Part shown: piece after piece, positions 1 through 11,244 of the stretch | Layout: every line of letters begins with the position of its first letter | How positions within the stretch are numbered: the stretch's first letter is position 1 | Origin: Xanthomonas bonasiae | Lineage (GTDB): Bacteria > Pseudomonadota > Gammaproteobacteria > Xanthomonadales > Xanthomonadaceae | Reading direction: 5' to 3' | DNA: 64,000 bases | NCBI RefSeq assembly: GCF_017163705.1 | Contig: NZ_JAFIWB010000019.1 | Span: 1 to 64,000 of the forward strand | The notes under the pieces: generated by a model | What the model was told of the DNA's origin: nothing | Database searches by the model: none | What the model saw: only the letters and a program-made list of their open reading frames with translations | Made by a program: the position numbers and the translations under genes

Positions 1-310
1 CCAATCACCAGCCCGCCTCAAATCCCCTGTAGGAGCGGCTTCAGCCGCGACCGCCTCACCGACCAACCACCAGCCCGCCTCAACTCCCCTGTAGGAGCGG
101 CTTCAGCCGCGACCGCCTCACCGACCAATCACCAGCCCGCCTCAACTCCCCTGTAGGAGCGGCTTCAGCCGCGACCGCCTGACCGACCAATCACCAGCCC
201 GCCTCAACTCTCCTGTAGGAGCGGCTTCAGCCGCGACCGCCTCACCGACCAACCACCAGCTCGCCTCAGCTCCACTGTGGGAGGGACTTCAGTCCCGACA
301 GCCTTACCGA
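1..310. repeat. Five tandem 62-bp repeats, each with a REP hairpin
   Basis: Five head-to-tail copies of a 62-bp unit begin at 1, 63, 125, 187 and 249. Each unit starts with CCAAYCACCAG and contains one REP-like palindrome (GGAGCGGCTTCAGCCGC core) at 28-51, 90-113, 152-175 and 214-237. The fifth copy is divergent and carries the variant core GGGAGGGACTTCAGTCCC at 276-299. Copies one to four differ by only a few bases, so the expansion looks recent. The array runs up to the 5' end of the UxuB-like gene and may continue left of the window. The same REP core recurs alone at 11890, 14114 and as an inverted pair at 35501-35570. Confidence 0.93.
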
Positions 311-348
311 CCAAGCCTCAGACCGAACGCCTCCCCCATGGAAATCCC

Positions 349-7251: not shown

Positions 7252-7335
7252 CCGATAACGGGAAATGGGGTCGGGGAATATCGCTTGAGCTGAATATTTC
7301 CTCTGGCCCCATTGTTGGATCCGCTCTATTTAGAA

Positions 7336-7402
7336 GCGGTAACGGGGTCAGGCTGACTTCTTAAGTGTACCTGACCCTATTATCTTGAGTGAATTGTTAG
7401 GA
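7336..7402 (-). other. Degenerate attC site
   Basis: Read on the minus strand, CCTAAC-AATTCACTCAAG gives a good R''/L'' half and overlaps the TAA stop of the gene at 7397-7963. The middle is a palindrome, GGGTCAGG...CCTGACCC (7344-7378), and the far end reads GTTACCG as a possible R' box. The second half is therefore weak; a palindromic repeat may have replaced it. Confidence 0.4.
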
Positions 7403-7963
7403 GGCAACTGCCAAGCCCCATGAGTACGCCGCCAGCCTTACTAGTGCTACGAATATGGCGACTACACCGATTGCAATGAGGGTGGCGCTAAGGTATCTAC
7501 GCCATGCCGGAGGCTGCGGATTCCACAGGACGTTGACGATCTTAGCAAAGCCCTCGTCCGACTTGCATGAGGTATTGATTTGGCTAAACAAGAGTGGTGG
7601 ATAGTAAATATATATTATTGATACTTGTTCGTAGGAAACAAGCTTTGGAAAAGCTATATCCGCGCTCCCATTTTGTAGGTGCTCTACCGTGAAAGGCACC
7701 GATGGAAATACCGAGAAGTCTTGCGGGAGTGTTGCATGCGACAGTCTCACATTTGTTGCTGCGGCCTTTCCGGAGTTGCGGACAACCACTGTGTGAGTAT
7801 GAACGTTGAACATTTGACCATTTTGAGGTCGGACCGGTACGGCAGCAGAATGCGACATAAAAGACACGAGCTTTGGTCGCCTCTCTAGGTATCGATTCGC
7901 AATGAAGCCAATCCAGAACGCAACGATCGGAGCCGCGATTGTCGCTATTGGTTGCCAGTTCAT
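7397..7963 (-). CDS. Cassette gene: two-helix membrane protein of unknown function
   Basis: A 188-residue protein, not recognised as a named family. An N-terminal membrane helix (IATIAAPIVAFWIGFIANRY, residues 6-25) is followed by a soluble beta-rich region of about 110 residues that includes VVVRNSGKAAATNVRLSH, a pattern seen in immunoglobulin-like extracellular or periplasmic domains. A second helix (YLSATLIAIGVVAIFVALVRL) lies near the C-terminus. The stop codon TAA is the TTA inside the GAATTGTTAGG of the attC-like site, as expected for a cassette gene. The start is 16 bp from an element homologous to 10033-10070. Confidence 0.6.
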   Translation of the reverse strand: MNWQPIATIAAPIVAFWIGFIANRYLERRPKLVSFMSHSAAVPVRPQNGQMFNVHTHTVVVRNSGKAAATNVRLSHATLPQDFSVFPSVPFTVEHLQNGSADIAFPKLVSYEQVSIIYIYYPPLLFSQINTSCKSDEGFAKIVNVLWNPQPPAWRRYLSATLIAIGVVAIFVALVRLAAYSWGLAVAS

Positions 7964-8136
7964 GAGAATCCTTTTGGCCAGAAGCTACTATTCGGCTACA
8001 GTTTGGATTGTAATCAATAATAACGGGTCAGGTTTGCTTATTAAGTGAACCTGACCCTATTACTTGCAGTATCCGGCAGCGCGGGAAGAGTAGGGTTGCT
8101 AGGAGTTAGTTGTCCGCTCATGAAAATTCCCTTATA

Positions 8137-8188
8137 AGCTAATGCTTGAGTTAAGCCGCGCCGAAGGTGTCGTATGGAATTATTAATT
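8137..8188 (-). other. Degenerate attC site
   Basis: On the plus strand AGCTAAT-GCTTGAGTTAAGCCGCGCCG is followed by GTGTCGTATGGAATT-ATTAATT. The left half matches the GCCTGAGTTAAG half of the site at 9649 nearly base for base, and the outer boxes are imperfect complements (AGCTAAT against AATTAAT). The TAA stop of the 8187-8429 gene overlaps the right box. Confidence 0.55.
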
Positions 8189-8429
8189 AAGAGCGAAAAT
8201 ATATGCCGCGCTCAATGTCCGCTTGAGCAATGCCGAAAAGATTCTCGGTCAGGCGCTGCTTGTGCTGCATAAAGTAATCCATGTGCGTGATGAAGTCGAC
8301 GCTATACGCGGGACTAATTTGGCACTCACCAAGAAATGCAACTACGGAGTAGCCATTCTCCGTCTGTGAGAGTTTCAGAGTGAAGTCCTGATCTCTATGG
8401 CGGAAAGTGCGAAGTTCAATCTCTTGCAT
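8187..8429 (-). CDS. Cassette gene: 80-residue hypothetical protein
   Basis: A small soluble protein with a predicted beta-beta-alpha start (IELRTFRHRDQDFTLKLSQTENGYSVVAFLG) and a C-terminal helix pair (FITHMDYFMQHKQRLTENLFGIAQADIERG). It has no recognisable motif. The stop codon lies in the attC-like site to its left. The roughly 250 bp upstream (8430-8682) hold no convincing gene, which is long for a cassette leader and suggests deletion or decay there. Confidence 0.55.
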   Translation of the reverse strand: MQEIELRTFRHRDQDFTLKLSQTENGYSVVAFLGECQISPAYSVDFITHMDYFMQHKQRLTENLFGIAQADIERGIYFRS

Positions 8430-8604
8430 GAGGATGCTCCATGATTGGCCAGAAGGTCTGAAATGGGTCTACCGGCGAAGCGGGAAAGGCTCGAATGAGA
8501 CTTTCTCTAGGTGTAGCCAACACTAGACCCAATAGCAAGACATTAGAAGAGCTTCGGCGACGAATTCTTTGAGTTCCATCGCTCCCCGCGCGATTGTTCA
8601 AATA

Positions 8605-8686
8605 CTAGAACAAAGGGATCAGAGGAAAAAATATGTGTTTGAAATAGACATTTACTCTGGCCCCGTTGTTCCGAATGAATTTTTAA
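8605..8686 (-). other. Relic attC site with palindromic insert
   Basis: On the minus strand ATTTAAA-AATTCATTC resembles the R''/L'' half of the site at 9184 and overlaps the stop of the 8683-9174 gene. The interior is a long imperfect palindrome (GGGATCAGAGGAAAAA...ATTTACTCTGGCCCC) related to one at 7266-7308. A final TTTGAACAATC on the minus strand may be the last trace of L'. No R' box is left. Confidence 0.3.
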
Positions 8687-9174
8687 ATTGCACCTGCCTC
8701 ATCTGAGATGACGCGAGAGGCACATGCCGCTGTGCTGATATCAATATTGCGAGCCAGTTCTGTTGGTTCATATGCGTAGCGCCAGCTAGTAAATACATCC
8801 TTGGTAGCAGCGAAAACCTCGGCGATTTCTACGGTCTGATTGCCACCGCTGCTCTTGTTCCTCGTTTTAGCAATCCGCGCGTACCGCTGCTCAAGGTTGC
8901 GCCTTACGTCAGTTGGCAGGGCATTGAAGAGCTTAACGTGATCATGCGTACGTAAAGCTTTCCCATGATGCTTGAGTAGCAAGGCCTTAAGTGCAACTTC
9001 TATGCTCAGCGATGTCAGTACTACTGCGCCAACAATCGGCCCGAGTGTAGCCAGATGAACCATGCCGGATTTGGTCTTCTTGGTGTTGCTGAAATCAAAA
9101 TCATCCAAGAGCTTGTAAGCAGCCCACTCGTACGCTTTCGCAAGATTTGTTGCTGCTTCAGCTAGAGAGGACAT
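8683..9174 (-). CDS. Cassette gene: HEPN-like helical protein
   Basis: 163 residues, all helical. The segment LTSLSIEVALKALLLKHHGKALRTHDHVKLFNALP (about residues 52-86) has the SxExxLKALL...H..HdhxkLfxxL pattern of HEPN-type domains, a fold used by toxins, defence RNases and nucleotidyltransferase partners. A canonical RxxxxH RNase motif is not obvious, so nuclease activity is not claimed. The frame is open to 9285, but that would run through the attC at 9184-9248. The ATG at 9174 starts ten bases after the attC boundary, as expected for a cassette. Confidence 0.65.
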   Translation of the reverse strand: MSSLAEAATNLAKAYEWAAYKLLDDFDFSNTKKTKSGMVHLATLGPIVGAVVLTSLSIEVALKALLLKHHGKALRTHDHVKLFNALPTDVRRNLEQRYARIAKTRNKSSGGNQTVEIAEVFAATKDVFTSWRYAYEPTELARNIDISTAACASRVISDEAGAI

Positions 9175-9183
9175 GTCTGTGCG

Positions 9184-9248
9184 GTCTAACGCCTGAATTA
9201 AGTCGACTGGTGGAGACAGTTCAGTTCGGCTTGAATGAATTGTTAGAC
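9184..9248 (-). other. attC recombination site, near-canonical, 65 bp
   Basis: The outer boxes GTCTAAC (9184-9190) and GTTAGAC (9242-9248) are perfect inverse complements and fit RYYYAAC/GTTRRRY. The inner arms GCCTGAATTAAGTCG and CGGCTTGAATGAATT are imperfect complements, the normal attC asymmetry. The TAA stop of the 9243-9632 gene is inside the right-hand box. Confidence 0.82.
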
Positions 9249-9632
9249 CCCACTGCCACCATACGTACTCTGGCATACCGGGCACATATGGCTAGCCAAA
9301 TCTTTGAACGTTGTGGGTACTGGAGCCAAGCGGATTGTTTTACGCGAATTGTCGTAGCAGCCGGAGCAAAACGGACCTTCACCGTCTTGCTTGAAGTACG
9401 CGCCATTTTTGAACTCAAGGACAGGCGTAGATTGCTTGACGGCCAACTGCATTTTGAGGTCTGTGTTCTCGTCCAAGACACTGGCCAGCTCAGATTTAAG
9501 CTTTGCGAGCTCCAAACCGAGATCGGCAAGCGCATTGCTGAACTCTGCGTTCTCAATGTTCTTGTTTATCTCTCTGAGGCGCGAGACAAGTTGCATTGAT
9601 GTTGCTACTGCCGCGAGTACGGTGGCTGCCAT
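9243..9632 (-). CDS. Cassette gene: coiled coil plus zinc ribbon
   Basis: 129 residues in two parts. Residues 1-70 form a heptad-patterned helix (LVSRLREINKNIENAEFSNALADLGLELAKLKSELASVLDENTDLKMQL). Residues 75-129 form a zinc-ribbon module, CSGCYD...MCPVC, preceded by YFKQDGEGPF. Proteins with this build are frequent in integron cassettes and phages; their partner is unknown. The ATG is 17 bp from the attC at 9649-9706 and the stop lies in the attC at 9184-9248, so the cassette is about 465 bp and complete. Confidence 0.7.
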   Translation of the reverse strand: MAATVLAAVATSMQLVSRLREINKNIENAEFSNALADLGLELAKLKSELASVLDENTDLKMQLAVKQSTPVLEFKNGAYFKQDGEGPFCSGCYDNSRKTIRLAPVPTTFKDLASHMCPVCQSTYGGSGV

Positions 9633-9648
9633 TGACTTTCCTTATGGG

Positions 9649-9706
9649 GTCTAACGCCTGAGTTAAGACGGCACGATTTGGGCTTGGCTTGAACGAATTG
9701 TTAGGC
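9649..9706 (-). other. attC recombination site, near-canonical, 58 bp
   Basis: The outer boxes are GTCTAAC (9649-9655) and GTTAGGC (9700-9706). The inner arms are GCCTGAGTTAAGACG and GGCTTGAACGAATT. The left half is nearly identical to that of the site at 9184 and the right half matches the standard GGCTTGAACGAATTGTTAGGC-type ending. The stop of the 9701-10021 gene (TTA on plus) lies in the right box. Confidence 0.82.
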
Positions 9707-10021
9707 GGCATTGCCATGGAATCTGGAGACGACGTCCTTAACGAGCATAGGCTCATCGCTGTCCTCCCAGAATAGCTTGCCGCCATCTTGAACGAAGTAA
9801 GTAAGAAGTTGCTCCGCCAACGCAAAGGCCAAGCTCAGCGCCTGCCATGAATCCTGTCCTACAACCTGATGTGGCTTATCGCCAAATCCGACCATCTTAA
9901 CCTGGCATCCCCACGATTCATCGTCGATCTTCTCTGGCGCCTCAAGTGAGAACAAGAACTTGATTCGCTTACCGTGAGGATCAACTCCATCAAAAATTCG
10001 CTCTGCTATAAGTGCTGTCAT
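9701..10021 (-). CDS. Cassette gene: DUF6968-like protein
   Basis: 106 residues. A beta-rich N-terminal half (ERIFDGVDPHGKRIKFLFSLEAPEKIDDESWGCQVKMVGFGD) precedes a helix GQDSWQALSLAFALAEQLLTYFVQDGGKLFW. The GxDSxQALxLA...L..F....G..L.W pattern is that of DUF6968, small proteins of unknown function. The start at 10021 is chosen because it lies 12 bases after a GCCTAAC box at 10033-10039 that looks like the preceding recombination point; the frame itself is open to 10138. The cassette is about 384 bp. Confidence 0.68.
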   Translation of the reverse strand: MTALIAERIFDGVDPHGKRIKFLFSLEAPEKIDDESWGCQVKMVGFGDKPHQVVGQDSWQALSLAFALAEQLLTYFVQDGGKLFWEDSDEPMLVKDVVSRFHGNAA

Positions 10022-10032
10022 TGTGTGGTGCC

Positions 10033-10070
10033 GCCTAACTACTATTCGACGACAGTCTGGGTTGTAAACG
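10033..10070 (-). other. Cassette boundary or attI-like element
   Basis: On the minus strand the box GTTAGGC (10039-10033) fits an integron recombination point immediately upstream of the first recognised cassette gene. The adjoining sequence ACTACTATTCGACGACAGTCTGGGTTGTAA has no attC partner arm. A diverged copy of it lies at 7978-8010, just upstream of the start of the 7397-7963 gene. It may be attI or an unusual attC family. Confidence 0.35.
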
Positions 10071-10357
10071 AGGTGTCTATCCTCGCTTCCGCTAGGCCTA
10101 GCTGCAATAGCGGCCTTATCACACCAACAGATTTCCACGAAGTAGGTGTGTAAACCCCGTGCCTAATCATGGTGTCCTTCCCGTGAAAGCCGATTAGTGT
10201 GACGCTATCAGCATAATTCGACGGTCGCAAGGACTCTTGCGATTCGGATGGTAGACATCCGATTCGTTGTGGCCGGCCGTGTTCTTACTAGCAAGCTTTT
10301 TGAAAGGATGGAGGGACATCTATTGACAGGATTTAAGACTCAGCCGCATGATTAGTC

Positions 10358-10443
10358 CGTTGCGGCAAATCCCGCAGCCGAGTTTGACAGCTCGAACGAC
10401 CGAGGCGCACAGCGCCCATCGTCGATGCCGGCGCTTTTTTTGT
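10358..10443 (+). ncRNA. Candidate short leader or small RNA ahead of the SymE-like gene
   Basis: A TTGACA box at 10323-10328 is followed about 18 bases later by CATGAT/GATTAG. Some 85 bases further on lies an intrinsic terminator at 10411-10441. Between them TGCGG-CAAATC-CCGCA can form a hairpin. This is consistent with a short RNA of about 80 nt or an attenuated leader. It rests only on these motifs. The stretch 10040-10598 otherwise holds no gene I can support. Confidence 0.25.
10411..10441 (+). terminator. Intrinsic terminator
   Basis: The stem AGCGCC-CATCG / CGATG-(CC)-GGCGCT is followed immediately by TTTTTTT (10435-10441). It lies upstream of the SymE-like gene on the same strand, so it would end an upstream RNA or attenuate the leader. 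Confidence 0.55.
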
Positions 10444-10524
10444 GCCTGCATGGCGATGGGAACGTGCCTGCTTTCTGGCGGGCGGTGCGCGGAGACCGCA
10501 AGGTCTGCCGGTCCTCGGTCCGGT

Positions 10525-10561
10525 CTGTCAACCGCGTACCGTCCGCCACCTCGGTTGACAG
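10525..10561. promoter_or_regulatory. Perfect inverted repeat with facing TTGACA boxes
   Basis: CTGTCAACCG (10525-10534) and CGGTTGACAG (10552-10561) are a perfect 10-bp inverted repeat with a 17-bp spacer. Each arm contains TTGACA, on opposite strands. It lies 38-74 bp before the SymE-like start. It could be an operator, an RNA hairpin, or a pair of -35 boxes for sense and antisense transcripts. Confidence 0.4.
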
Positions 10562-10598
10562 CGTGGAGGTGGACTCCAATCCAACCGAGGAGTCCGAC

Positions 10599-11036
10599 AT
10601 GCATCGTTTCAACAGAACCACCTTCATTCCCCCCAAGGCTGCATCCGCGTCGCGTACACCCAAGCGCAGCGCTCGATCAGCCGACACGCAGGCCGCTGAG
10701 CACCCCGCGACCGCCGATGCCTCCCCATTCGCCACACCTACCGCGTCGCGCCTACGCTTCCGCGTGCCCGAGCGCTGCACGATGAGTTACCAGCACTACG
10801 ACGTGCGCCGCGCCGAGGATGTCGTCGGCTGTGCCGTGCCCAAGCTGCGCCTGTCCGGGCGCTGGCTGGAGCAGTACGGTTTTGCGGTGGGCGATGCGTT
10901 GCGGGTGACGGTGGGGCGCGGGGTGTTGTTGATCAGTCGCGTGCCGGCTGCGGTCGTGCCATCGGCGCAGGCTGCGGGGAAGAAGAAGGCGCGCGCAACG
11001 CGCGCCGCTTCGCCTCCGCTGCGAGCCAAGGTCTGA
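10599..11036 (+). CDS. SymE-like type I toxin-family protein
   Basis: 145 residues. Residues 1-55 are a low-complexity basic/Ala-rich stretch. Residues 60-118 hold the SymE/AbrB-like swapped-hairpin signature: VPKLRLSGRWLEQYGFAVGDALRVTVGRGVLLISRV. In E. coli SymE is an SOS-induced protein whose synthesis is blocked by the antisense RNA SymR. Xanthomonas genomes carry many relatives, usually annotated as type I addiction toxins. The ATG at 10599 follows CCGAGGAG. The long N-terminal extension and basic tail (GKKKARATRA) are not in E. coli SymE. The structured leader upstream may be regulatory. Confidence 0.72.
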   Translation: MHRFNRTTFIPPKAASASRTPKRSARSADTQAAEHPATADASPFATPTASRLRFRVPERCTMSYQHYDVRRAEDVVGCAVPKLRLSGRWLEQYGFAVGDALRVTVGRGVLLISRVPAAVVPSAQAAGKKKARATRAASPPLRAKV

Positions 11037-11244
11037 TGTCATTGGTGTGCGCACGTCCGTGTGGCGTGCGCTGCCATAGCCACGCCAGCGTCGCGTGAGG
11101 TGGCGACTGGCGTGGTGTCGGTGGCCGGCTTTTGCTTCGATAGCGCTGGCCTCGATCCTTAGATTCACTCGGCGTTTCCAAGATCGAAACGTCGCCCTGC
11201 TACCGTGCGCGCCAGGCAAGTGCCTGGCCTCCAAAGGAGCGAGC

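What the first reader, a model, noticed from the sequence alone, without database searches (positions are those of the whole stretch)
7336..10039. Integron gene-cassette cluster with no integrase in view
Two clear attC sites (9184-9248 and 9649-9706), with perfect or near-perfect outer boxes and GGCTTGAAYGAATTGTTAG-type arms, plus three degenerate ones, each overlap a stop codon of five consecutive minus-strand genes. Two cassettes can be cut out exactly as 465 and 384 bp. Cassette genes with a HEPN-like, a coiled-coil/zinc-ribbon and a DUF6968-like protein are candidates for novel defence or regulatory functions.
Basis: partly seen in the sequence, partly recalled or inferred. Interest (0 to 1): 0.82.

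Follow-up and report, generated by a model that had tools for sequence, protein, structure and literature searches.

The report
Integrase-less cassette array with own attI
A small gene-capture array in a Xanthomonas-like bacterium has no integrase beside it but keeps a docking site (attI) of a second integron type, and related species carry the same integrase-less dock with different captured genes, which suggests that one integrase can serve several docks in a genome.

Summary
The array is real. A covariance model trained only on attC sites from other contigs finds the two named attC sites (60.9 and 48.7 bits; E 3e-13, 4e-10). The three 'degenerate' ones are marginal. Cassettes of 384 and 465 bp are exact. 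But this is more than an array without an integrase. It starts at a complete attI-type site (R box 10033-10039, leader to ~10238) of a second type (attI-B). That type sits beside intI in three other genomes and is unlike the canonical ilvD-linked attI. Three further species share this locus: same intI-less flank, different cassettes, identity collapsing at the crossover point. Loci X and Z behave alike. Of 13 non-ilvD attC clusters found in 12 genomes, 12 begin at an attI-type site, some decayed. Best reading: orphan attI docks, loaded in trans by an integrase elsewhere. Here the ilvD-linked intI has an in-frame stop and the window array is decaying, so probably inactive now. Conserved integrase-less arrays in Xanthomonas are published; attI docks heading them I did not find in my paper searches. 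Cassette functions stay unknown.

The parts
10039..10238 (-). attI-B leader: homologous to the attI-intI leaders of G007, G020 and G061, without any intI
   Evidence: Excluding the last 20 nt, alignment z = 14.3, 7.2, 10.4 against 100 shuffles each; 0.4 and 1.0 against two type-A leaders; 0 of 2000 random non-overlapping window pieces score as high, for each of the three
10033..10047 (-). attI-type core GAATAGTAGTTAGGC; R box GTTAGGC at 10033-10039, crossover between 10039 and 10038
   Evidence: one of 5 places in the own genome with CAATAGTAGTTRRRY at <=1 mismatch, each at the head of a cassette array, control 0
10041..10068 (-). promoter-like site (TTTACA, 16 nt, AATAGT) reading into the first cassette; possible Pc
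   Evidence: consensus scan, 9 of 12; 2 sites found in 501 bases against 0.4 in shuffles; weak
9655..10038 (-). cassette 1, 384 bp; gene 9701-10021 (106 aa, DUF6968)
   Evidence: R boxes; PF22302 E 3.6e-7
9648..9707 (-). attC of cassette 1 (the model hits the + strand, i.e. the bottom strand)
   Evidence: 48.7 bits, E 4.2e-10
9190..9654 (-). cassette 2, 465 bp; gene 9243-9632 (129 aa, predicted coiled coil with CxxC pairs)
   Evidence: R boxes; tblastn relatives on 31 plasmid records, best 33.9% identity; no Pfam family above cut-off
9183..9249 (-). attC of cassette 2
   Evidence: 60.9 bits, E 3.2e-13
8683..9174 (-). cassette 3 gene, HEPN-domain protein (163 aa)
   Evidence: PF05168 E 4.1e-5, 24.1 bits, cut-off 22; no plasmid relative at E<=1e-5
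8448..8509 (-). degenerate attC-like site
   Evidence: 16.9 bits, E 0.055
8187..8429 (-). small gene (80 aa), no family
8137..8193 (-). degenerate attC-like site
   Evidence: 17.6 bits, E 0.036
7985..8013 (-). second, decayed attI-B-like head (GAATAGTAGCTTCTGG, R box lost)
   Evidence: 29 nt, 86% to 10039-10067, 93% to the heads of G006 and G012
7397..7963 (-). gene (188 aa) behind the second head, no family above cut-off
7368..7403 (-). attC-like remnant, not significant alone
   Evidence: 9.1 bits, E 0.41

Best explanation
The cluster is an integron cassette array anchored at an orphan attI: an attI-type site (type B) with its leader, but no integrase gene. Shown: attC sites, attI-B head, absence of intI, the same intI-less head at the same place in four species, different cassettes behind it in each, and a conserved/variable boundary at the crossover point. 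Inferred: since the intI-less flank is shared, intI was already absent from this locus in the common ancestor, so the later cassette exchange at the dock was done in trans by an integrase encoded elsewhere (the ilvD locus). The same holds for locus X (type B) and locus Z (type A, same truncated intI stub in two species). One integrase gene would thus have served several attI docks in one genome, each a separate capture and probably expression slot. In this genome the ilvD-linked intI has an in-frame stop and the window array is decaying, so the dock is probably silent now.
Against: The window's own cassettes have no relative in the 20 other arrays compared, so traffic into this particular dock is not shown. 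Three of the four Y genomes now have broken integrases, so any trans action lies in the past. One genome per species: no strain-level comparison. Integrases beside attI-B in G020 and G061 are about equally far (70-72%) from the canonical one and from that of G007, so 'type B' is a class of attI, not proof of one cognate integrase. The leader match is weaker for X and G012_Y (z 1.9-5.0 and 2.3-3.4). One cluster (G007, 60 kb) has no head. X head in G010 has no attC at E<=1e-4. One search scored only 150 first-look candidates per genome.
Confidence: 0.68

Rival explanations
1. Frozen relic: duplicated integrons lost their intI separately in each lineage after their arrays had already diverged, so nothing ever acted in trans.
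For: intI stubs and partial leaders show that integron heads do decay; the window array is degenerate.
Against: All four Y loci share the same intI-less flank and both Z loci share the same truncation; separate losses would have to reuse the same breakpoints.
Confidence: 0.17
2. Array exchange by homologous recombination: an intI-less flank spread between lineages that carried different arrays, with crossovers in or near attI.
For: Xanthomonas species exchange DNA (Colombi 2025 passages); palindromic repeats lie within the window array and bracket the opposite-facing array of G017 at locus Y.
Against: At X, Y and Z identity falls at the crossover point itself and stays high upstream of it; repeated homologous crossovers would scatter.
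Confidence: 0.1
3. Cassettes inserted at ordinary genomic attG sites and the head resemblance is a promoter or chance.
For: attG insertion is known (Loot 2024, seen here only as cited in PMC12901181 and PMC12444791); the core overlaps a promoter-like site.
Against: The resemblance extends over about 200 nt to leaders beside intI, and the core pattern was found beside attC in 19 of 19 cases.
Confidence: 0.05

Closest known systems
CALIN (cluster of attC sites lacking an integron integrase), as described in Xanthomonas by Colombi et al. 2025 (PMC12444791; I saw abstract, outline, passages and section 11)
   Same: At least two attC sites, no intI nearby, away from ilvD, at chromosomal positions conserved between species. 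The paper reports non-ilvD CALINs in about half of the genomes and, in the well-sampled species, at seven loci.
   Different: Here the array has an attI-type head with leader. The passages I read do not mention attI at CALINs; they attribute conserved positions to ancestral integron activity.
Sedentary chromosomal integron (ilvD-linked Xanthomonas integron)
   Same: attI anchor, same attC family, outward array, promoter-like site at the core
   Different: no intI beside it; attI of another type; several such docks per genome
Delta-attI-type unusual cassettes of mobile integrons (PMC12901181; abstract and passages seen)
   Same: attI sequence away from its integrase gene can be recombined by IntI1
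   Different: those are attI pieces inside cassettes of class 1 integrons; here whole attI leaders anchor arrays at conserved chromosomal loci
attG insertion of cassettes (Loot et al. 2024, seen only as cited)
   Same: cassettes outside the main array without local intI
   Different: attG sites are neither attI nor attC; here an attI leader is present

Membership tests
CALIN | two or more attC sites | tested here: met
   two strong covariance hits
CALIN | no integron integrase nearby | tested here: met
   tblastn with two integron integrases, nothing below E 5 in the window; TIGR02249 matches in the own genome lie on C55, C34 and C7, none on C10
complete integron | intI next to attI | tested here: not met
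complete integron | attI site | tested here: met
   by sequence only: core and leader homology; recombination not tested
complete integron | Pc promoter reading into the array | tested here: inconclusive
   promoter-like site 9 of 12
complete integron | cassettes cut out at G|TTRRRY | tested here: met
   exact R boxes, 384 and 465 bp; excision itself not testable here
attG-inserted cassettes | insertion site is neither attI nor attC | tested here: not met
   attI-B leader at the head
anti-phage defence system | match to a known defence protein | tested here: not met
   PADLOC, five proteins, best E 0.057
trans-served attI dock | recombination at the dock by an integrase encoded elsewhere | not testable with these tools
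   inferred from comparison only

The most novel reading that the evidence does not exclude
Xanthomonas-type genomes hold a multi-dock integron: one integrase at ilvD and several orphan attI docks (up to six attI-type sites in this genome: ilvD, X on C44, Y in the window, Z on C55, C89, C32), including a second attI type inherited from an integron lineage of which an integrase gene was recognised in only one genus genome. Each dock is a separate, attI-anchored capture slot, so that conserved 'CALINs' of this genus are integron branches worked in trans rather than random insertions or dead relics.
Probability: 0.5. Interest if true: 0.78.

Novelty: new variant of a known kind. Interest (0 to 1): 0.6.

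Why it matters
Integrons are described as one integrase with one attI. If arrays without integrase are anchored at orphan attI sites that can be loaded in trans, a genome has several insertion slots for captured genes. CALIN surveys that report only intI and attC would miss the anchor, and the puzzle of why such arrays sit at the same places in different Xanthomonas species gets a direct, testable answer. Orphan attI-B sites in 9 of the 20 genus genomes (X or Y), against an integrase of that type recognised in one, also suggest that a second integron lineage was more widespread in the genus than its integrase genes show. That bears on the published view of a single ancestral acquisition with a rare later transfer into X. 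arboricola.

Tried and rejected
Considered and set aside. (1) The array as a plain decayed integron with intI next door: no trace at Y. (2) A C4/SymE unit as part of the integron: the block 10250-11199 is present without attI-B in G017 and not matched at the locus in G014, G015 and G004, so it is a separate neighbour. (3) attI-B as a mere promoter: rejected by the leader tests. (4) Defence function of the HEPN gene: PADLOC empty; I did not fold it. (5) Rfam at gathering thresholds gives no attC family, only a C4 RNA. (6) The genome-contig scan for the head gave only 3 loci, with records near the own genome possibly left out, so it gives no named Xanthomonas species. (7) Plasmid searches with the attI-intI regions mainly returned ordinary integron integrases and hit the 5000-record limit. 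(8) First X alignment was wrong because three loci lacked 600 bp of upstream sequence; redone with longer loci. (9) First random-piece control did not exclude pieces overlapping the dock (0, 1 and 0 of 500 scored as high); redone without overlap. (10) Dendrograms of integrases were not built; types rest on pairwise identity.

Full report
Observation. The window is 1-64000 of contig C10 of an unnamed 5.38-Mb genome. I built a covariance model from 24 attC sites of contigs C55 and C89 and searched the window with it: 9183-9249 (60.9 bits, E 3.2e-13) and 9648-9707 (48.7 bits, E 4.2e-10) stand out; 8137-8193 and 8448-8509 follow at E 0.036 and 0.055, and 7368-7403 is not significant. R boxes on the minus strand give cassettes of 384 and 465 bp.

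The head. In the own genome the string CAATAGTAGTTRRRY with at most one mismatch occurs five times, control 0, each time at the head of a cassette array: twice on C55, once on C32, C89 and, at 10033-10047, in the window. In 20 genus genomes AATAGTAGTTRRRY has 19 hits in 11 genomes (control pattern 2 hits). All 19 have an attC hit on the cassette side within the 1.5 kb held. Nine of the 19 lie next to ilvD, ten do not. This is therefore the attI core of the genus.

Two attI types. Next to ilvD in most genomes the leader reads CCGCTTTTAGGCGGTCCAATAGTAG (type A). The window leader is different (type B) and matches the attI-intI leaders of G007 (whose intI lies next to ilvD), G020 and G061. Leaving out the last 20 nt, the window leader aligns to these with z = 14.3, 7.2 and 10.4 against shuffles, and to two type-A leaders with 0.4 and 1.0; 0 of 2000 random window pieces score as high in each of the three cases. 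The link is weaker for locus X (z 1.9-5.0) and for the G012 copy of this locus (z 2.3 to G061, 3.4 to G014X). The integrase of G007 is 60% identical to the canonical one; those of G020 and G061 are 70-72% identical to both, so attI-B is a class of sites and not the mark of one integrase.

The locus in relatives. Window 10030 onward is conserved in G007, G012 and G006, with the left end of the homology at the R box. Behind the head all four differ: no cassette is shared by nucleotide comparison, and the matches seen lie beyond the last detected attC. tblastn with two integron integrases finds no trace of intI at any of the four. Identity is 0.78 in -200..-40, 0.92 in -40..0 and 0.34 in +4..+120. 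In G014 only 717 bp lie between the two flanks and I saw no attI-B; G015 keeps a type-A-like leader remnant, G017 has a type-A head with cassettes facing the other way, and G004 has an attC remnant without a head (heads judged by eye).

How general. [quoted passage not shown] Twelve begin at an attI-type site: seven with the exact core, five diverged or decayed (C89, C44, G011, G017, G019). The cluster of G007 near 60 kb does not. Single attC sites without any head also exist (for example G000 C33).

Mechanism. An intI-less head shared by several species, followed by different cassettes joined exactly at G|TTRRRY, means that site-specific recombination went on at the head after intI had gone. 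Whether by insertion or by excision of cassettes from a longer ancestral array, exact junctions need an integrase, hence one acting from elsewhere. Cassette traffic supports this: the C89 array, which has a head but no intI, shares 742, 497 and 398 bp (92-96%) with the ilvD array of the same genome, and the G007 and G012 docks at the window locus share more diverged cassettes with ilvD arrays. The window's own cassettes have no relatives there. In this genome the ilvD-linked intI has an in-frame stop; of 20 genus genomes, 5 have an intI over the family cut-off, and only in G015 and G007 does the match run over at least 305 of the 315 model positions without a stop. The dock is thus most likely idle here.

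Cargo. DUF6968 and HEPN matches are just above cut-off, the third protein has distant relatives (best 33.9%) on 31 plasmid records and no family, and PADLOC is empty. I make no claim of function.

Literature. Searches of the held library: 'orphan attI' 0 papers, 'CALIN' with 'attI-like' 0 papers. Colombi et al. 2025 (abstract, outline, passages and section 11 seen; supplements not seen) report conserved CALIN loci and integrase decay in Xanthomonas, without attI at CALINs in what I read. Subscription papers, including the original Xanthomonas integron survey that they cite, were not seen.

Noticed in passing
window 10471-10553 and 10599-11036: A C4 antisense RNA match (RF01695, 69.7 bits) directly upstream of a SymE-family gene. 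The block 10250-11199 comes and goes as a unit at this locus, and similar pieces occur elsewhere in several genomes.
   Followed up: partly
window 7267-7310, 7344, 8025-8057, 8664: Palindromic repeats (GGGGYCRGR ends; GGGTCAGG..CCTGACCC) inside the array; similar ones bracket the opposite-facing type-A array of G017 at the same locus (L173).
   Followed up: partly
window 7985-8013: A second, decayed attI-B-like head inside the cluster, closer to the heads of G006 and G012 (93%) than to the window's own head (86%): two dock generations may be stacked.
   Followed up: partly
L117 (JAFKNA010000004.1, Lysobacterales MAG) 2219-2239: A type-B-like head followed by an attC (83.4 bits) with no integrase hit at E<=1e-10 in the 8 kb held: a possible orphan dock outside the genus. 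L115 and L116 are MAG contigs that end just after such a head.
   Followed up: partly
plasmid NZ_CP045288.2 (Curtobacterium flaccumfaciens) about 130003-131032: A stretch 81-89% identical to the attI-intI-ilvD region queries of this genus on a plasmid of a Gram-positive plant bacterium.
   Followed up: no
window 1-314: Tandem repeat, 62-bp unit, 5.1 copies.
   Followed up: no
L188 (G007 54-68 kb): attC cluster without a head; its upstream flank is shared with G011 (88% over 1.8 kb), where the cluster has a decayed type-A head.
   Followed up: partly
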